Shown: positions 10,078 through 21,134 of the stretch, piece by piece
How positions within the stretch are numbered: position 1 is the stretch's first letter
How the letters are laid out: every line of letters begins with the position of its first letter
Virus record (IMG/VR): IMGVR_UViG_3300003873_000058
Location: 1 to 24,961 of that record
Length of the DNA stretch: 24,961 bases
Direction: 5' to 3' (one strand)
Origin: a virus
Translations under genes and position numbers: made by a program
The notes under the pieces: model-generated
The model's input: only the letters and a program-made list of their open reading frames with translations
What the model was told of the DNA's origin: nothing
Databases searched by the model: none

Positions 10078-10686
10078 ATGAAAAAACTATTAGTTCTATT
10101 ATTTCTATTAAATAGTATTTTATTCTCTTCTGATTATGTATTAGTTAGTACGCCTATATATACAAATATATATTCAGTAACTAATAAGATACCAGAAATT
10201 GGCATTGTTCATTTAAAATGGGACATTGTCAAACAAAAGACAAAGAGAATTAACAATTTTCATCAAAATAAGTTAATAACGAGTAATATTCAAGCTACTA
10301 ATAAGGATTATGCACATTCAGGTTTTGATAAAGGACATTTTTCTGCTAGTAATGCTGATTGGGACAATAATAAAAGTAATATGGCTTATACATTTGCATT
10401 TACAAATATGACACCACAATACCCTAAAACTAATAGAGTTTCATACAGAAAAGTTGAGGGGTATGGTAGGAGTCTTGTGGAAAAGTACCAAGATATATTC
10501 GTTATAAATATAGCAGTTCTGGGAACTCATTACATGAAAGGACATATAAATATTCCATCAGAGTATATAAAAATATTTATTCATGGTAATTCAAAAGAAT
10601 GTTATAGAATACCAAACGATAATAAAGTTTATACATTAGAAAAAATGAAAATTGATTGTAATAGTATAAGAATAAATAATTTATAG
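10078..10686 (+). CDS. Secreted DNA/RNA non-specific endonuclease
   Basis: Serratia/NucA-type metal-dependent nuclease. The active-site motif is DKGH at 84-87 (His87 the general base, Lys in place of the usual Arg), and the metal-binding Asn is in TNMTPQ (109-114). Residues 1-17 (MKKLLVLLFLLNSILFS) are a typical Sec signal peptide, so the enzyme should act in the periplasm or outside the cell. The mature start (DYVLVSTPIYTNIYSV) resembles exported nucleases of Campylobacterota, suggesting capture from the host. The catalytic domain is slightly short (about 185 residues). It has almost no ribosome site of its own and probably depends on coupling with the preceding gene, one base away. Destroying competing or leftover DNA outside the membrane is a possible role. 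Confidence 0.85.
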   Translation: MKKLLVLLFLLNSILFSSDYVLVSTPIYTNIYSVTNKIPEIGIVHLKWDIVKQKTKRINNFHQNKLITSNIQATNKDYAHSGFDKGHFSASNADWDNNKSNMAYTFAFTNMTPQYPKTNRVSYRKVEGYGRSLVEKYQDIFVINIAVLGTHYMKGHINIPSEYIKIFIHGNSKECYRIPNDNKVYTLEKMKIDCNSIRINNL

Positions 10687-10930: not shown

Positions 10931-12814
10931 ATGTCCGGTATATTTGACGAATTAAAAAAAGCAAATAACGATATAGAAATAGAAAACGAACTTAAAGATA
11001 AATTTCTAGAAGAAATAGATACAGAAAAGAACCAAGAAGGTTATTATTTAGATGCCTTTGGTTATCCTATTTCTTTTAATGGTATAAGACAATTAAAAAG
11101 ACCTTATACAAAAATGGAACTAAATAAAATCCACCAACAAGAAATTATTAAATGCCAAACAGATTATTACTACTTCAGAAAAAACTACTGTAAAATTCTA
11201 ACTAAATCAGGTATAGGTAGACCAGAACCCCGCGACTATCAAAAAAGAGCAGAAGACGCATTACTAAAAGGTGAAGATACTATATTATTTTTCCCTAGGC
11301 AATGTGTCATAGGTGATACTATAATAAATGTAGATAATAAAGATATAACTATAAAAGAATTATATGATTTATATTCTAATACAAACAATATAATTAATAA
11401 TGATGAACTATTTATAGAAGGTTTTAATACAAAACCCCACAAAATAAAATCTAACTCTAATACAAATCTATCTTGTATAATGAAAACAAAAAAATTAAAA
11501 ATATATCAAATAGAACTCGCAGATGGAAAAACCCTTAAAGGCGCAGAAAATCATACAATAATAACTAAGGATTATGAAGAAGTTACTATTAATAATTGTT
11601 TAGATAAAGAGATAATAACAACAGATGGATATAGTAAGGTTATAAAGGTATTAGATTTAGGATATGAAGATAATTGTTATGATATAACACTTGATAATCT
11701 AGATGAATTATATTATACTAATGATATACTTAGTCATAATTCCGGAAAAACAGTAACAATTGCAACTTACCTGTTGTGGAAAGCTCTAACAAAAGAAAAC
11801 ATAACTATAGGTATATCAGCAAATGTTGTTTCTTTAGCTAGAGAAGTTCTAGATAAAATTAAAAAAATATATATCGAATTGCCTATATGGTTACAACCTG
11901 GTTTAATGTCTTGGAATAAAGGTTCTATAGAATTCGATAATGGTAATAAAATACTTACAGCAGCATCTAACTCTAATGCCTTTCGTGGATATAGCCTAAG
12001 TATACTTTATTGTTCTCACGAAGAGGAGATTGTTACTGTAAAGAATAAAAAAACCGGGTTAGTAGAAAATATATCTTTAAAGGAATTAAGGGCGAGATTA
12101 GATGAAGGTGTCCAAATGATAGTAAATAACGATTATGAAATATTAACTCACAAAGGTTTTAGAGACTTTAAAGGCCTCAAGGAATCCAAACACAACGAAT
12201 ACATAAAAATATATTATCATGATGGAAGTGACTTTACTTGTTCTAAGGACCATAAAATGATTATAGATGACGAAATAGTAGAGGTCATGTCGTTATTGCC
12301 TGGGACAACTATAGGCAATAAGATAATAAATTCAATAGCTATTATATCTAGTGCTAATAATGAAACGTTCTATGATCCTGTTGCAGTTGAATTTACTGGG
12401 TCATATTTGATAGATGGTGTCATACAAAAAAATTGCGATGAGGCTGCGTTCTTGAGAAATTCAGACTATGAAGAATTCATGGATTCAGTTATGCCTGCTA
12501 TGGCTGCTATACAAGATAGTCAAGCTATATTTAGTAGCACAGCTAACGGTTTAAATTTCTTTTATCACATGGTCCAAGGTGCTATAAAAGATATAAATGG
12601 TTATAATTTGGTTCAAGCAGATTGGAAGGAAGTACCGCGATGGGATAAAGATGGTAGTATACTCTCTCATGAAGAATTTAAAAGAAGAGAAGTAGCAAAA
12701 AATGGACTTATACACTTCGAACAAAACTTCGGCAACTGTGTATGTTTTGATACAAAGATAGAAATAGAAGGAATGGGAGAATTAAAAATAGGAGAGCTGT
12801 ATGAGTCACTCTAA
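10931..12814 (+). CDS. terL: Terminase large subunit, N-terminal half, with three intein parts
   Basis: DNA-packaging motor ATPase, T4 gp17 family. Extein segments are residues 1-124, 271-360 and 502-602. Removing two mini-inteins restores Walker A (FPRQ joined to SGKT) and Walker B (LSILY joined to CDEAAF). The coupling motif FSSTANGLNFFYHM follows. From Cys603 the last 25 residues are the N part of a split intein, after which the frame stops at TAA. The downstream gene is in another frame with its own ribosome site, so the break is real unless mis-sequenced. The spliced N extein is 315 residues and contains the ATPase centre; the nuclease is on the other polypeptide, so trans-splicing is required to join motor and nuclease. 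AAAAGGA and a TATAAATA late motif precede the ATG. Confidence 0.93.
   Translation: MSGIFDELKKANNDIEIENELKDKFLEEIDTEKNQEGYYLDAFGYPISFNGIRQLKRPYTKMELNKIHQQEIIKCQTDYYYFRKNYCKILTKSGIGRPEPRDYQKRAEDALLKGEDTILFFPRQCVIGDTIINVDNKDITIKELYDLYSNTNNIINNDELFIEGFNTKPHKIKSNSNTNLSCIMKTKKLKIYQIELADGKTLKGAENHTIITKDYEEVTINNCLDKEIITTDGYSKVIKVLDLGYEDNCYDITLDNLDELYYTNDILSHNSGKTVTIATYLLWKALTKENITIGISANVVSLAREVLDKIKKIYIELPIWLQPGLMSWNKGSIEFDNGNKILTAASNSNAFRGYSLSILYCSHEEEIVTVKNKKTGLVENISLKELRARLDEGVQMIVNNDYEILTHKGFRDFKGLKESKHNEYIKIYYHDGSDFTCSKDHKMIIDDEIVEVMSLLPGTTIGNKIINSIAIISSANNETFYDPVAVEFTGSYLIDGVIQKNCDEAAFLRNSDYEEFMDSVMPAMAAIQDSQAIFSSTANGLNFFYHMVQGAIKDINGYNLVQADWKEVPRWDKDGSILSHEEFKRREVAKNGLIHFEQNFGNCVCFDTKIEIEGMGELKIGELYESL
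11303..11740 (+). other. Mini-intein 1 in TerL Walker A, 146 residues
   Basis: Starts at Cys125 (CVIGDTIINV, block A) and ends YYTNDILSHN before extein Ser271. Block B is TLKGAENHTIIT, with the conserved Thr...His, and block F begins NCYDITLDN. No LAGLIDADG or HNH endonuclease fits in the length. It separates FPRQ from SGKT, so unspliced protein cannot bind ATP. Its last ten residues are identical to those of the split intein downstream. Confidence 0.93.
12011..12433 (+). other. Mini-intein 2 in TerL Walker B, 141 residues
   Basis: Starts at Cys361 (CSHEEEIVTVKN) and ends YLIDGVIQKN before extein Cys502. Block B is FTCSKDHKMII (Thr...His), and block F is FYDPVAVEFTGSYLIDG. The penultimate residue is Lys rather than the usual His, and block F lacks the common His, as in some functional non-canonical inteins. 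It splits LSILY from CDEAAF, the Walker B motif. The alternative boundary, moved by a residue, is unlikely because Cys occurs exactly at both the first and the +1 position. Confidence 0.9.
12737..12811 (+). other. Split intein 3, N part (25 residues)
   Basis: Residues 603-627 of the first TerL polypeptide: CVCFDTKIEIEGMGELKIG, then ELYESL and a stop. It has intein block A with Cys1. The break comes right after block A, unlike the usual position near the endonuclease site. The same atypical layout, with a 25-residue N part, is known from the AceL-TerL intein in another phage terminase. The N-extein residues before it are FGN. Confidence 0.92.
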
Positions 12815-12843
12815 TATAAAGATAAAACGAAGGAGATTGAGAG

Positions 12844-13161
12844 ATGCTTAAAGTTCTTAAAAGACCAATAAAAGTTCAGACACCAGAAGGCTATAAAAGC
12901 TTTACAGGAATACAGAAATACTTCAAGAAGACAATAACTATAAAAACTGAAGATAAATCTATAGATGTTGCAGAACTTCATAGATTTGTTGTTGATAAAG
13001 AAGAAATATTTGCAAAAGACCTAGAAATAGGGAGTATACTACAAACAAAAGAAGGAAAAGTTAAAGTTATAGATGTATCTGAGGGCCCAGTTAGAGACGT
13101 ATACGACCTTATAAATGTCGATGGCGAAGTTTACTATACTAATGATATATTGAGTCACAAC
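12844..13161 (+). other. Split intein 3, C part (106 residues)
   Basis: It has its own ATG and a strong AAGGAG. It carries block B-like VAELHRFVV and ends VYYTNDILSHN before extein Ser107 (SFLGSS). The segment VQTPEGYKSFTGIQKYF corresponds to the opening strands of the C part of atypically split TerL inteins. The gap to the N part is only 29 bp and contains no homing endonuclease gene. Confidence 0.92.
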
Positions 13162-14010
13162 TCGTTTTTGGGCTCTTCGTCAACACTTATATCTAGCGAC
13201 GCTCTTAAATCAATAGATACGTATAATGATGAAGATATAATTTTTGATTCTCTATTTGACGGATTAAGAATATTTAAAGAACCTATTCCTGGAAGACACT
13301 ATATATTAACATCAGATCCTAAAAAAGAAGGACTAGATGCTGCAGGACTCCAAGTTATAGATGTTACAAATTTACCTTTTGAACAAGTAGCAGTAGCCCA
13401 ACTTCAAGAAAGTTACTTAATGATACCAGGTAGATTATTTGAATTAGGTAATTACTATAATAACGCTTTAGTAGTATGCGAAAATAATATAGGCGAAAGT
13501 ATTCCAAGTACCTTGTTCTATAACTATGAATATGAAGGCGAAATTTTCATAGAATTAGACAAAAATGGTAAACAAAAGAAAGAAATGGGTATAAGAACAA
13601 CAGTTAAAACAAAAAGACTCGGTTTAACTCTATTAAAGAAATTTATAGAAGAAGGTAATTTTATAATAAATGATAGAAAAACCCTTGACGAACTATTCAA
13701 CTTTATAAAAAAGAAAAATGGTACATATAGCGCAGAAGAAGGCTATCACGATGACTTAGTTATGAGTTTAATGCTAACATTTGCACCATTTCTAGACTTT
13801 AAAAATTGGGATAACTTCGTTGGCTTCGTCCAATACTTGGAAAAATCAGCTAAAGAAAAAGAAGAACAAATACAGGAAAGTGCAGAATTTTTAGATTTAG
13901 GCTTTGGGCCAGATGATAATACAGATTCATCGCCTTTTACAGAAGATATATGGGAAAATTCAGATATGGGTATAACTGCCATGGAAGATTGGAATCAAGA
14001 TTTCAACTAA
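12844..14010 (+). CDS. terL: Terminase large subunit, C-terminal half, with split-intein C part
   Basis: The second TerL polypeptide. Residues 1-106 are the intein C part; residues 107-388 are extein. The first extein residues SFLGSSSTLIS continue directly from FEQNFGN of the upstream half, matching the T4 gp17 region that reads FLGSSxTLIS. The headful nuclease (RNase H fold) follows: TSDPKKEG with Asp158, VVCENNIGES with a catalytic Glu candidate, and YHDDLVMSLML with the final Asp pair. Joined to the N exteins, the product is 597 residues against 610 for T4 gp17. The tail (FLDLGFGPDDN through EDIWENSDMG) is acidic. GAAGGAG lies 8 nt before the ATG. The stop overlaps that of the convergent minus-strand gene. 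Confidence 0.93.
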   Translation: MLKVLKRPIKVQTPEGYKSFTGIQKYFKKTITIKTEDKSIDVAELHRFVVDKEEIFAKDLEIGSILQTKEGKVKVIDVSEGPVRDVYDLINVDGEVYYTNDILSHNSFLGSSSTLISSDALKSIDTYNDEDIIFDSLFDGLRIFKEPIPGRHYILTSDPKKEGLDAAGLQVIDVTNLPFEQVAVAQLQESYLMIPGRLFELGNYYNNALVVCENNIGESIPSTLFYNYEYEGEIFIELDKNGKQKKEMGIRTTVKTKRLGLTLLKKFIEEGNFIINDRKTLDELFNFIKKKNGTYSAEEGYHDDLVMSLMLTFAPFLDFKNWDNFVGFVQYLEKSAKEKEEQIQESAEFLDLGFGPDDNTDSSPFTEDIWENSDMGITAMEDWNQDFN

Positions 14011-15368
14011 ATAAATGTACCTATACTCATATAATTCTTACCCTTATATGACGCTTTTAATTCAGCAATTTTTATATCATATTTAATAATAGCCTCAGGT
14101 CTTTTACATCTTTTTCTAATAGACCTAGCCTTTATAAGCTCACATTCATATTGATTTTGTCTATTTCTTATGTCTCGCTCTTTTATAAAGTCCTCTTTAG
14201 ATAGATTATTTACCCTATTAGCAAATACTAATCTCTCTTCTATAGTTTCCATATCATACATGGATGGTATATAATGTATTTGCTCAGATTTATGTATTAA
14301 TAACTCGTCATGATTAGATATATACTTAGTTAAACCATTTATATCTATTATAGACTGATTCATCTGTCTTTCCCATATTTCGTATTCATGGAATAATGTA
14401 TATTTAAACGTTTTTATTATTTCTTTTATTTCTATATATAAACCATTTAAAATTGTATTACTTATATCAGGTTTTATACCTTTTTCTATTTGATAAGGTA
14501 ATTTATTTAAAGTTTTCTTGGTTATAAACATTCTTACCTTTTCCTTATTTTCTATATAGTATTTTATATTTGCAGACTCTAAATTAAATTTTTCTGCTTG
14601 AATATATAAAAATTGATATATAGCAGTACTCATGTCAATAGAATTATAGTCGGGAAATAAGTTTATTTTATCCACTTTTGATAAATTATTCCAATATTTG
14701 TTATATAATCTACCTTCGCCTTCAGATTTACTAGACGGATACTGTATAAGAAACGTACTATCTTGTATATACTTTATCGACTCTTTCTTTTTATCATCTA
14801 CCCAACAATTTGGTTCATATTCTTTATTAGGCTGTATTTGTTGTATATCTACATTGTTAAATTTTTTAATGCTTCTTATATTCATTTTTTCTACATGCTT
14901 AATTATAATATTCTTATAAGGTTCTGATTGTAATAGTATAATAATTTTTGCTAAAAAATCATTACTATCTCTATCAACATTATATTCACTATTGCTAGAA
15001 TTTTCTTTATCGTTTTTATATATACTATATCCCTTTACAGTTTCCTCTATAAAACCAAAAAGATACGATTTATTTTTACATTTGTTTGTTTTAGCATTTT
15101 TTATTTTGTTATATTTTACAAGATGGAGATATCTCGTTTGTATATACGCTAGTTCGAAACTAGAAATATATTTTCTTTCGTTTGCGGAAAACTTAGTAAA
15201 AACACCTATAAACTTCATTAATTCTTTTTCTGATATAATTTCAAAGAATTCTATCATATTTTTCATAGCTTTTATTCTATCTTCGTTAAAATTACAAAAG
15301 CTATTCACGTCGTCATTCTGGTATTTTAAAAGTTGAGACTTGTATAGATTAATGAGTTTTGTACGCAT
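14007..15368 (-). CDS. Unknown 453-residue protein, convergent with terL
   Basis: The largest unrecognised protein of the window. It is soluble, very rich in Lys, Ile and Asn, with no signal peptide. A distinctive central stretch has GEGRLYNKYWNNLSK, NLFPDYNSIDMSTAIYQFL and YYIENKEKVRMFITKKTL (about residues 216-287). An order of GRxY, then a hydrophobic ID strand, then a Lys-rich helix faintly recalls nucleic-acid polymerase-like or replication proteins of mobile elements, but no catalytic set can be shown. The C-terminal 80 residues are helical and basic (ECELIKARSIRKRCKRPEAI). Start: AAAAAGGA precedes the ATG inside the loop of a small CAGTATT/AATACTG hairpin, and a short upstream frame ends one base before it. 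It differs from its neighbours in strand and in its long structured leader, suggesting an acquired unit. Confidence 0.65.
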   Translation of the reverse strand: MRTKLINLYKSQLLKYQNDDVNSFCNFNEDRIKAMKNMIEFFEIISEKELMKFIGVFTKFSANERKYISSFELAYIQTRYLHLVKYNKIKNAKTNKCKNKSYLFGFIEETVKGYSIYKNDKENSSNSEYNVDRDSNDFLAKIIILLQSEPYKNIIIKHVEKMNIRSIKKFNNVDIQQIQPNKEYEPNCWVDDKKKESIKYIQDSTFLIQYPSSKSEGEGRLYNKYWNNLSKVDKINLFPDYNSIDMSTAIYQFLYIQAEKFNLESANIKYYIENKEKVRMFITKKTLNKLPYQIEKGIKPDISNTILNGLYIEIKEIIKTFKYTLFHEYEIWERQMNQSIIDINGLTKYISNHDELLIHKSEQIHYIPSMYDMETIEERLVFANRVNNLSKEDFIKERDIRNRQNQYECELIKARSIRKRCKRPEAIIKYDIKIAELKASYKGKNYMSIGTFI

Positions 15369-16524: not shown

Positions 16525-17265
16525 ATGAATTTTGGTATAAGTGACGATAGTGCTTTAAATAACGAGTATAATTTATTTAGATCTACTACAGAAGAGTTAA
16601 TTAATCTTTATGGTATAGAGATTACATATATATTAACTGCTAAAGTAAATCAGGATGACATATTTGGAGAACATTCGCATATAAAGATAGATAACGAGAA
16701 AATCTTTAAATTTTTTGCTAAACCAGAAGAAACTGAGACATTTGGTGGCGAGGGTGATTTATATTCTAAGTTTGGTTTACAAAATTTAGATACAATGTCA
16801 TTTTACGTATCTAGAACTGATATGGAAAAAATTCATCCTGAGATAGTAAATAGAGCAGGTAAAGCGACTGTGGACAATTTACCATTCGGGAACATAATAA
16901 AGTTGCCTAATAATAAATTATTAGAGGTAACAGATATGAAGTTACAGTCGGATACATTTGGTAACAATAATTCATTTACAACAGATAGACATAAGAATGT
17001 TTATAAGTTAGTTACTAAGTCATATTTTTATAATCATGACGATTTAGAAAAGTCTGCAGATATAACAACATCAGACAAGTTCGATTATACAGATTTCGGT
17101 AACTTAGATGCTATATTTAGTGATGAAAATACACAAAGAGATAATGTTACAACAAGGTCAGAAAGTACTATATTAGCTGATGAGACAATATATCCTGCAG
17201 AGATAAGAAAGAAACCTGTTAGAATAAAAACAGACGAGACTAATCCTTTTGGGGATTTTGGATAA
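16525..17265 (+). CDS. gp14: Neck protein, T4 gp14-like
   Basis: Head-completion neck protein that, with gp13, closes the filled capsid and provides the tail attachment site. It is close in length to T4 gp14 (246 against 256). Family-typical segments are INLYGIEITYILTAKVNQDDIFGE (26-49), GGEGDLYSKFGLQNLDTMSFYVSR (74-97), and PFGNIIKLPNNKLLEVTDM in the middle, followed by KNVYKLVTKSYFY. The C-terminus is disordered and ends NPFGDFG. AAGGAT lies upstream of the ATG. The gene is downstream of terL, separated by a minus-strand insert, and gp13, gp15 and gp16 are not seen around it, so gene order differs from T4. Confidence 0.85.
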   Translation: MNFGISDDSALNNEYNLFRSTTEELINLYGIEITYILTAKVNQDDIFGEHSHIKIDNEKIFKFFAKPEETETFGGEGDLYSKFGLQNLDTMSFYVSRTDMEKIHPEIVNRAGKATVDNLPFGNIIKLPNNKLLEVTDMKLQSDTFGNNNSFTTDRHKNVYKLVTKSYFYNHDDLEKSADITTSDKFDYTDFGNLDAIFSDENTQRDNVTTRSESTILADETIYPAEIRKKPVRIKTDETNPFGDFG

Positions 17266-17269
17266 AAAT

Positions 17270-17746
17270 ATGATATATGAAACGTTTAGAGAAATAGTAG
17301 AAATCGATATATTAATAAATGCTAAAAAATCGTATTCTGTATTAGGTTCTAATGAGAGTAAAGGTATTTTTTCTTGGGATATGGATAAGAAAAAAATGCT
17401 AGTAAAAGATATAAAGAAACGAAAACCTGTCATTGCATATAGAACATATTCCTTATCTGAAAAAGAATGGAATAAGTATTTTGACGGAGGTTATACAGAG
17501 ATAGGAAACAAAAATATAGAGAAAGGTCTTACTTCTCTAACACTAGATAAAAAAATGCTAAATAGATTTAAAGGCGGCGGCGATATTACTATTGAGCTTG
17601 AAATTAAAATGAAAGAGTATACTGAGATTTTGGACGATAGTATATATCCAGAAGAAAAAGAAATTTTAGGTAATGATATAAAATGGAAAGTAACAGATTT
17701 AGATGATAACACTAGAAACTGGTATATTATAGGCGAACAAATATGA
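17270..17746 (+). CDS. Hypothetical protein, 158 residues, after gp14
   Basis: Not recognised. It is an alpha/beta protein with SYSVLGSNESKGIFSWD near the start, a Lys-rich centre (DKKMLNRFKGGGDITIELEIKMKEYTEI) and the ending RNWYIIGEQI. The ATG at 17270, 4 nt after the gp14 stop, is preferred; a TTG at 17249 inside gp14 is also in frame. Its TGA overlaps the ATG of the ADP-ribosyltransferase-like gene. A structural or head-packaged role is possible from its position only. Confidence 0.55.
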   Translation: MIYETFREIVEIDILINAKKSYSVLGSNESKGIFSWDMDKKKMLVKDIKKRKPVIAYRTYSLSEKEWNKYFDGGYTEIGNKNIEKGLTSLTLDKKMLNRFKGGGDITIELEIKMKEYTEILDDSIYPEEKEILGNDIKWKVTDLDDNTRNWYIIGEQI

Positions 17747-18312
17747 AATTTAAAGACTATATAACGGAAGGAAAATTACAAACAATTTACCATGGTGATA
17801 ATTTTAATACGAAGAAATTGATACCTAAATTGATGATGCAGGAATCAGGAAATAGTCAGGAAGGTGTAGGAATATATTTTTCTAACAAAATAGAAACAGC
17901 AGAAAGTTACGGTAAAGATGTTATAAGCATTAATGTAGATACAAAGAAACTTATACCTAGTAGAGGTTATATTGGAGATGAAATAGGAATAAAAAATATT
18001 GCTAAAATTCTGCGAGATATGTACAAAATAGATGAAGAGGAAATGTACTATTATATAAGCGATTGGCTTGAAATAATGGAACCTGAAGATATTAGGGATT
18101 ATCATTTTGACAAAATGGCAAAAAATATTAAAGATACACAGGTTAGAAATTTCCAAATAGACATTTCAGAAAAGTTTGGTGTTGTACATTTTGTAGAAAG
18201 TTGGAATAAAGTTACAAGGATTGACGGTACATACGAAAAAGTGTCGCAAGATGAGACATGGTATGCTATAATAAATCCTTATATTAAGGTGAAAAGTATT
18301 AATATAATTTAA
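17743..18312 (+). CDS. Capsid-targeted ADP-ribosyltransferase-like protein
   Basis: The N-terminus MKFKDYITEGK fits the capsid-targeting pattern (ITE then Gly, the preferred cut context). The body resembles ADP-ribosyltransferase (ART) domains of the type found in phage polyvalent proteins: IYHGDNF with His17, then QEGVGIYFS (39-47) and the helix ETAESYG (51-57), and a final strand WYAIINPYIKVKSINI like the family's conserved xYxVxxPxxIK end. A third catalytic Gln/Glu is likely just before that strand (SQDE) but cannot be fixed by eye. T4 Alt is a head-packaged ADP-ribosyltransferase that modifies host RNA polymerase immediately after injection; an equivalent role is inferred. The ATG overlaps the previous stop. 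Confidence 0.72.
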   Translation: MKFKDYITEGKLQTIYHGDNFNTKKLIPKLMMQESGNSQEGVGIYFSNKIETAESYGKDVISINVDTKKLIPSRGYIGDEIGIKNIAKILRDMYKIDEEEMYYYISDWLEIMEPEDIRDYHFDKMAKNIKDTQVRNFQIDISEKFGVVHFVESWNKVTRIDGTYEKVSQDETWYAIINPYIKVKSINII

Positions 18313-20404: not shown

Positions 20405-20683
20405 ATGTCTAAAATTAAACATATAAAAAATATAAATTTACTCGTTCATGAATATAACAAAAAATTGAGTAACTGTAGAACGCAATATAATAAAGCTGTA
20501 GAAGAAGAAAACAGAACAAATAATTTATTTAATAACCCTAAACTTATAGATGAAGAAAATTTGATTTTGGAAACACATTTAAAAGAACTTTATGAAATTA
20601 GAGAAATGCTAAACGTTGAAGAAAGTTTATTAGAAGGCTTTATAGAAGACTTAAATTCTCTATTGGAACAATTAAATGAATAA
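20405..20683 (+). CDS. Helical protein, 92 residues
   Basis: Mostly two long helices (NINLLVHEYNKKLSNCRTQYNKAVEEENR; LILETHLKELYEIREMLNVEESLLEGFIEDLNSLLEQL) resembling a coiled-coil hairpin. It has no strong ribosome site and is probably coupled to the preceding coiled-coil gene. Its last 8 nt overlap smpB. Not recognised. Confidence 0.55.
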   Translation: MSKIKHIKNINLLVHEYNKKLSNCRTQYNKAVEEENRTNNLFNNPKLIDEENLILETHLKELYEIREMLNVEESLLEGFIEDLNSLLEQLNE

Positions 20684-21134
20684 AGATTATGCTAAAAATA
20701 AAAAAGCTTTTTTTGATTATGAAATGCTGGAGACTTACGAAGCAGGTATTTCATTAAGCTCTTCAGAAGTAAAGTCTATAAGAGAATGGAAAGTTACGTT
20801 ATTAGGTTCTTATGCTTCTGTAGATGGAAATAGTATAATTTTAAAACAATGTTCTATATCTAAACCTGATAATATAACATATAATTCTAATGAACATTCT
20901 GAAAATAGACATAAAAAACTATTATTAAATAAAAAAGAAATAGAAAAAATAAAGAAACGCGTTTCAGAAAAAGGTATATCATTAATAGTAACAAAAATAT
21001 ATCAGAGGGATAACACAAAGTTTATAAAATGTACTCTTAACGTTGCTAAAGGTAAAAGAAATTATGATAAACGAGAAACTATTAAAAGAAGAGAATCAGA
21101 TATAGATACAGCAAGACAACTTAAAGATTATTAA
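20676..21134 (+). CDS. smpB: SmpB, tmRNA-binding protein homologue
   Basis: SmpB binds tmRNA and brings it to stalled ribosomes for trans-translation. The full family layout is present in the normal length (152 residues): NKKAFFDYEMLETYEAGISLSSSEVKSIREWKVTL (8-42) matches the bacterial motif with ETYEAGIxLxGTEVKSLRxGKVxL, followed by GSYASV (44-49), KKLLLNKKEIEKI (80-92), VSEKGISLIVTKIY (96-109) and VAKGKRNYDKRETIKRRE (123-140), which includes the DKRxxIK tail element entering the decoding centre. The usual Gly-Thr before EVKS is Ser-Ser here. The start overlaps the previous gene by 8 nt. No tmRNA gene is visible in the window, so it would use the host's or one elsewhere in the genome. Confidence 0.93.
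   Translation: MNKDYAKNKKAFFDYEMLETYEAGISLSSSEVKSIREWKVTLLGSYASVDGNSIILKQCSISKPDNITYNSNEHSENRHKKLLLNKKEIEKIKKRVSEKGISLIVTKIYQRDNTKFIKCTLNVAKGKRNYDKRETIKRRESDIDTARQLKDY

What the first reader, a model, noticed from the sequence alone, without database searches (positions are those of the whole stretch)
10931..14010. Terminase interrupted by three inteins, at Walker A, Walker B and the motor-nuclease junction
Seen: Cys-started, Asn-ended blocks split FPRQ/SGKT, LSILY/CDEAAF and FGN/SFLGSS. Removing them gives 315 + 282 = 597 residues, near T4 gp17 (610). All three are mini-inteins without a homing endonuclease. Each insertion blocks a catalytic or structural step, so packaging activity depends on two cis and one trans splicing events. 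Inference: splicing may time packaging or keep nuclease and ATPase apart until late.
Basis: partly seen in the sequence, partly recalled or inferred. Interest (0 to 1): 0.9.

Follow-up and report, generated by a model that had tools for sequence, protein, structure and literature searches.

The report
Phage DNA-packaging motor with three inteins
The gene for a T4-like phage's DNA-packaging motor is cut by three self-removing protein inserts, one of them shared between two separate genes, so the motor must be spliced together from two polypeptides; each insert belongs to a known family, related phages carry the same kind of pile-up, and nothing here shows that it controls packaging.

Summary
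The gp17-type terminase is encoded in two ORFs (10931-12814 and 12844-14010) and carries three inteins without a homing endonuclease: 146 aa in Walker A (RQ/SGKT), 141 aa in Walker B (LSILY/CDEAAF) and a split 25+106 aa intein at the motor-nuclease junction (FGN/SFLGSS). Removing them leaves 597 residues that align to T4 gp17 with no gap at any junction. Models of inteins 1 and 2 fold as HINT domains; the split IntC matches CatC, the consensus of the AceL-TerL/GOS-TerL atypical split inteins (E 6e-12). The split is not a simple frameshift: the C-ORF has its own ribosome site and an in-frame stop just upstream, and relatives share the split point. In IMG/VR relatives these sites are hot spots: of 53 terminases, 24/15/11/3 have 0/1/2/3 sites filled, and a later scan added two more triples. 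L121 repeats the two-cis-plus-one-trans layout, with an endonuclease gene still in the split. Close relatives lack some or all inteins, so a timing role is unsupported; a stack of mobile elements, one of which lost its endonuclease, fits better. Each part is known; the triple mixed cis/trans terminase is a new variant. No splicing was tested.

The parts
10931..12814 (+). TerL N-ORF, 627 aa: exteins 1-3, inteins 1 and 2, IntN of intein 3
   Evidence: ORF; Terminase_6N; phrog_5989 terminase large subunit E 3.5e-52
11303..11740 (+). Intein 1, cis mini-intein, 146 aa, in Walker A (RQ/SGKT; gp17 Q163|L164)
   Evidence: C1, block B His, C-terminal HN/S; NCBIfam intein_Nterm E 1.1e-8 above cutoff; AF2 pLDDT 92.8 and Foldseek hits to inteins from E 4.5e-9; site-1 inteins form one clade 99/97
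12011..12433 (+). Intein 2, cis mini-intein, 141 aa, in Walker B (LSILY/CDEAAF; gp17 Y253|I254); penultimate Lys instead of His
   Evidence: AF2 pLDDT 90.9, Foldseek hits RadA intein 3.4e-7, VidaL 6.6e-7, Cat 2.3e-6; same-site homologs in L031, L056, L090, clade 100/98
12737..12811 (+). IntN of split intein 3, 25 aa (CVCFDTKIEIEGMGELKIGELYESL), followed by TAA
   Evidence: aligns with the N part of the contiguous intein of L022 and the 25-aa IntN of L030
12812..12843 (+). 32-bp gap: TAA, Shine-Dalgarno AAGGAG (12830-12835), in-frame TGA (12838-12840) upstream of the C-ORF ATG
12844..14010 (+). TerL C-ORF, 388 aa: IntC of intein 3 plus nuclease domain
   Evidence: ORF; Terminase_6C; phrog_24361 terminase
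12844..13161 (+). IntC of split intein 3, 106 aa, ending LSHN/SFLGSS (gp17 A354|A355)
   Evidence: IntN+IntC query matches PDB 6dsl_B CatC over the IntC part, E 6.3e-12; clade with L022, L053, L030, L100, 98/90
11297..11302 (+). Walker A, first half (RQ)
   Evidence: aligned to gp17 RQLGKT
11741..11752 (+). Walker A, second half (SGKT)
11996..12010 (+). Walker B, first half (LSILY)
12434..12442 (+). Walker B, second half (CDE)
13162..14007 (+). Nuclease extein, 282 aa, with residues aligned to gp17 D401/E458/D542

Best explanation
A T4 gp17-type large terminase whose gene carries three self-splicing mini-inteins from three site-specific lineages. Inteins 1 and 2 are predicted to splice in cis inside the N-terminal polypeptide, restoring Walker A and Walker B. 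The 25-residue IntN at its end binds the 106-residue IntC at the start of the separately translated C-terminal polypeptide and joins motor to nuclease by class 1 trans-splicing, giving one 597-residue terminase. The elements are best read as remnants of mobile inteins, maintained because failure to splice would inactivate an essential enzyme; at site 3 the split once held a homing endonuclease gene, as in L030 and L121, which this phage has lost. Splicing is probably constitutive. Shown here: sequence anatomy, fold, homology, occupancy in relatives, own ribosome site. Inferred: actual splicing, order of events, absence of regulation, endonuclease loss.
For: Gapless restoration of gp17 across all junctions and 58-67% identity to the spliced relatives L022 and L004. 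HINT-fold models and CatC homology. Site-specific clades: each window intein is 33-52%, 37-52% and 53-61% identical to same-site inteins of its close relatives, against about 17-39% to inteins at other sites. L022 holds site 3 as one uninterrupted intein; L030 and L121 hold it as IntN + endonuclease-like ORF + IntC; L100 has the same short IntN and stop with no endonuclease. The L030 ORF matches DUF559/MTES_1575. Site-1 intein under purifying selection (L004 vs L090: dN 0.037, dS 0.39). TerL P-loop and Walker B inteins are published for mycobacteriophages, with splicing shown (PMC5050341).
Against: No splicing was observed. Intein 2 has Lys at the penultimate position and its catalytic fitness is unknown, although phage inteins with Lys or Gly there are published and a Gly one splices well. 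IntN alone is not recognised by any profile or PDB search; its identification rests on alignment to homologs. dN/dS was measured on relatives, not on the window. Loss of the endonuclease is inferred from relatives.
Confidence: 0.87

Rival explanations
1. Splicing is a regulated step: slow or conditional excision (for example of the Lys-Asn intein 2, or the trans-splicing step) delays active terminase until late in infection or keeps ATPase and nuclease apart.
For: Sites lie in catalytic motifs and at the domain junction; intein 2 differs from its three same-site homologs by Lys for His; changing the penultimate residue of a phage intein strongly alters splicing rate (PMC5050341); about five TerLs in the set carry three inteins.
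Against: Occupancy is sporadic: L023 has none, L030 only site 3, L022 lacks site 2, L004 lacks site 3, so no conserved role. Inteins favour conserved catalytic motifs because these are invariant homing targets.
Confidence: 0.07
2. Site 3 is a contiguous cis intein (as in L022) and the apparent split is a sequencing or assembly error.
For: L022 and L053 hold this intein uninterrupted.
Against: One indel does not open a frame: the N frame stops at 12812 and the C frame has stops at 12802, 12817, 12823 and 12838; AAGGAG lies 8 bp before the C-ORF ATG; L030, L100 and L121 stop at the same place after IntN.
Confidence: 0.04
3. The blocks are ordinary, non-spliced terminase insertions and the enzyme works as two non-covalently joined pieces.
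For: Some phage genes in pieces work unspliced (split NrdA with mobE, cited in PMC7344957).
Against: Inteins 1 and 2 would sit unspliced inside Walker A and Walker B; all blocks are HINT-like with splicing residues and are absent as precise units in relatives.
Confidence: 0.02

Closest known systems
AceL-TerL and GOS-TerL atypical split inteins and their engineered consensus Cat-TerL (review PMC11766414; PDB 6dsl)
   Same: In a terminase large subunit; short IntN (25 aa in AceL-TerL, 25 here) and long IntC (104 vs 106 aa); IntC homologous to CatC, E 6e-12.
   Different: +1 residue is Ser here, Cys in those; here two further inteins sit in the same gene. That the insertion site is the same was not checked against their sequences.
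Mycobacteriophage TerL inteins (PMC5050341)
   Same: Inteins in the P-loop and in Walker B of TerL, some with a non-His penultimate residue.
   Different: Those are in terminase_1, terminase_6 and terminase-like proteins, all in the ATPase domain; no split intein at the motor-nuclease junction appears in the passages I read.
Aeromonas phage PX29 17A/17B and similar T4-like phages (Va1, EniLVp02, PSTRCR_127, 92A1, K469)
   Same: Terminase split in two genes with N- and C-intein parts at the junction before the nuclease; PX29 is annotated so.
   Different: Only that site seen filled in those I read; several keep an endonuclease domain or ORF in the split (GIY-YIG in PX29).
Campylobacter phages CP220, CP21 and IBB_35 terminase (PMC3322345)
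   Same: Intein at RQ/S in Walker A (CP220, CP21); IBB_35 terminase published as holding an intein plus an intron with an endonuclease.
   Different: No intein at the motor-nuclease site in CP220 and CP21; the second interruption of CP21 lies upstream of Walker B.
Fractured genes with split inteins and an endonuclease between the halves (Dassa et al. 2009, cited in PMC10448857)
   Same: Split intein with separate ORFs; L030 and L121 show the arrangement with a DUF559-like ORF between the halves.
   Different: In the window no endonuclease lies in the 32-bp gap.

Membership tests
Class 1 inteins (HINT splicing domain) | Nucleophile at position 1 (Cys/Ser) | tested here: met
   Cys in all three
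Class 1 inteins (HINT splicing domain) | Block B histidine | tested here: met
   AENH, SKDH and AELH in inteins 1, 2 and 3; His invariant in the alignments of inteins 1, 2 and IntC 3
Class 1 inteins (HINT splicing domain) | C-terminal Asn and Cys/Ser/Thr at +1 | tested here: met
   HN/S, KN/C, HN/S
Class 1 inteins (HINT splicing domain) | Penultimate histidine | tested here: inconclusive
   Present in inteins 1 and 3, Lys in intein 2; known to vary in phage inteins
Class 1 inteins (HINT splicing domain) | HINT fold | tested here: met
   AF2 models of inteins 1 and 2 match solved inteins; for intein 3 by sequence to 6dsl only
Class 1 inteins (HINT splicing domain) | Precise removal restores the host protein | tested here: met
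   No gap against gp17 at any junction
Class 1 inteins (HINT splicing domain) | Protein splicing activity | not testable with these tools
   Needs expression
AceL-TerL/GOS-TerL atypical split inteins | Short IntN (25-37 aa) and long IntC (104-115 aa) in separate ORFs | tested here: met
   25 + 106 aa with own ribosome site
AceL-TerL/GOS-TerL atypical split inteins | Sequence homology to the family | tested here: met
   CatC 6dsl_B E 6.3e-12
AceL-TerL/GOS-TerL atypical split inteins | Same insertion site in TerL | not tested
   Their native extein sequences were not at hand; agreement is from memory only
AceL-TerL/GOS-TerL atypical split inteins | Trans-splicing | not testable with these tools
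   Needs expression
T4 gp17-type large terminase | Terminase_6N motor with Walker A/B and Terminase_6C RNase H-like nuclease with three acidic residues | tested here: met
   Pfam above cutoffs; gp17 alignment including D255/E256, D401, E458, D542
Fractured-gene arrangement (split intein with endonuclease gene between halves) | Homing endonuclease ORF in the split | tested here: not met
   Gap is 32 bp in the window; an endonuclease-like ORF is there in L030 and L121

The most novel reading that the evidence does not exclude
The stacked inteins act as a maturation timer: a slow step (the Lys-Asn intein 2 or trans-splicing) keeps the motor inactive and apart from the nuclease until late in infection, an advantage that would explain why several phages of this group hold three inteins in one terminase.
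Probability: 0.06. Interest if true: 0.85.

Novelty: new variant of a known kind. Interest (0 to 1): 0.47.

Why it matters
It gives a natural series for one essential gene (no intein, contiguous intein, intein split with endonuclease, intein split without) from which intein splitting and endonuclease loss can be read, and a set of new short-IntN split inteins of the kind used for protein labelling. Relatives such as L100, whose terminase comes as three polypeptides with two split inteins, would let one test whether two different split inteins pair correctly in one cell.

Tried and rejected
Assembly frameshift at the split: rejected, needs more than one error. RNA element: no Rfam hit in the window. 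Plain-protein scans of viral contigs found few relatives; a pattern for N/CDEAAF gave one unrelated intein-bearing terminase and two chance hits. A genome-contig scan found no relative. My first occupancy scripts were faulty (a wrong option; one search called some filled sites empty because alignments ran into inteins) and were replaced by flank profiles. Sites 1 and 2 are filled together more often than independence gives (12 vs 5.7), but shared descent and scan bias are not corrected, so I draw nothing from it. IntN alone has no PDB match. Literature searches found no paper on this triple layout in the held library, which lacks most subscription journals.

Full report
Anatomy. The window is a virus record of 24,961 bases. 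The terminase is encoded by 10931-12814 (627 aa) and 12844-14010 (388 aa). Removing 11303-11740, 12011-12433, 12737-12811 and 12844-13161 leaves exteins of 124, 90, 101 and 282 residues, 597 in all. The product aligns to T4 gp17 at E 1.9e-68 (3ezk) with no gap at the junctions. Counting on that alignment, the sites fall at gp17 Q163|L164 in Walker A, Y253|I254 in Walker B and A354|A355 at the end of the motor domain. Before splicing, Pfam finds Terminase_6N on the first ORF and Terminase_6C on the second.

Are they inteins? Intein 1 passes the NCBIfam intein_Nterm cutoff. Inteins 1 and 2, predicted with alignments of relatives only, reach pLDDT 92.8 and 90.9 and their top Foldseek hits are solved inteins, including VidaL, gp41-1 and, for intein 2, Cat. 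The split intein matches CatC of 6dsl (E 6.3e-12), the consensus of GOS-TerL and AceL-TerL (PMC11766414). None of the three holds an endonuclease domain. Intein 2 ends Lys-Asn/Cys; its three same-site homologs end His-Asn/Cys. Non-His penultimate residues are known in phage inteins, and in one the native Gly splices better than His.

Is the split real? After IntN comes TAA; the C-ORF has AAGGAG 8 bp before its ATG, and its frame is closed by TGA at 12838 and other stops upstream. L030 has an equal 25-aa IntN and stop, then a 340-aa ORF with DUF559/MTES_1575 similarity, then an equal IntC. L121 has the same with a similar-looking ORF. L100 has the stop at the same place, overlapping the next start, with no endonuclease. 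L022 and L053 have the same intein unbroken. This is a natural series in which the window looks like a split that lost its endonuclease.

How common is it? A scan of viral contigs with spliced terminases gave 80 relatives. Reading the sites with flank profiles, of 53 terminases with all three sites readable 24, 15, 11 and 3 had none, one, two and three filled; the set is not corrected for relatedness and the scan's patterns may bias it. The triples are the window, L099 and L100; a second scan added L121 (two cis plus one trans, like the window, but with site 2 upstream of Walker B) and probably L123. L100 makes its terminase from three polypeptides with two split inteins. None shows the window's exact set (RQ/S, Y/CDE and split GN/S). 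Site 2 is really several neighbouring points: Y/CDE (window, L031, L056, L090), DE/C (L004, L087, SRB7757, VmeM-32) and just after RGFS or RGFT, upstream of Walker B (L055, L058, L099, L100, L121).

Where do they come from? In a tree of 33 inteins, site-1 inteins form one clade (99/97), the window's intein 2 groups with the other Y/CDE inteins (100/98), and its intein 3 with L022, L053, L030 and L100 (98/90). They are three site-specific lineages, not recent copies of one another. A site-1 intein pair (L004/L090) is under purifying selection (dN/dS about 0.1), as expected if failure to splice is lethal.

Function. The simplest account is constitutive autocatalytic splicing of remnant mobile elements.

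Known or new? TerL inteins in Walker A and B (PMC5050341), TerL atypical split inteins (PMC11766414), a T4-like terminase annotated as split with N- and C-intein parts (PX29) and an intein plus intron in a Campylobacter phage terminase (PMC3322345) are all known. Three in one terminase with mixed cis and trans splicing I did not find described; it is a new variant.

Noticed in passing
L100 2423-5813: Terminase of a related phage encoded as three ORFs: a split intein in Walker A, a cis intein upstream of Walker B and a split intein at the motor-nuclease junction, i.e. two trans- and one cis-splicing events.
   Followed up: partly
L099 2218-6554: Terminase with a split intein in Walker A, a second split intein upstream of Walker B with a T5orf172/MUG113-type endonuclease ORF between the halves, and a contiguous intein at the junction site.
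   Followed up: partly
window 2143, 8541, 9261, 9615, 10696, 15861, 16104, 17743 (ORF starts): Eight ORFs begin with similar N-termini of the type MK(T)F(K/R)(E/D)(F/L)..E, reminiscent of the capsid-targeting sequences of T4 internal head proteins (from memory).
   Followed up: no
window 20676-21134: Phage-encoded SmpB (PF01668, E 2.2e-42), with no tmRNA in the window.
   Followed up: no
window 17743-18312: Weak ART-PolyVal ADP-ribosyltransferase match (E 7.8e-6, below cutoff) behind one of the shared N-termini.
   Followed up: no
window 10078-10686: DNA/RNA non-specific endonuclease (PF01223, E 9.9e-26) with a signal-peptide-like N-terminus, shortly upstream of the terminase.
   Followed up: no
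window 13126-13163 and the end of intein 1 (about 11705-11742): The DNA of the C-terminal blocks of inteins 1 and 3 is 82% identical over 38 bp, more than their overall similarity suggests.
   Followed up: no
L004 4180-5130: A DUF7487-matching ORF interrupts the terminase between GASKK and GENGYNL, at a point unlike any intein site; no intein signature was seen there by eye.
   Followed up: no
window 14007-15368, - strand: 453-aa ORF on the opposite strand just after the terminase, without a Pfam or PHROG match; the neck protein, which follows the terminase directly in L030, lies beyond it at 16525.
   Followed up: no
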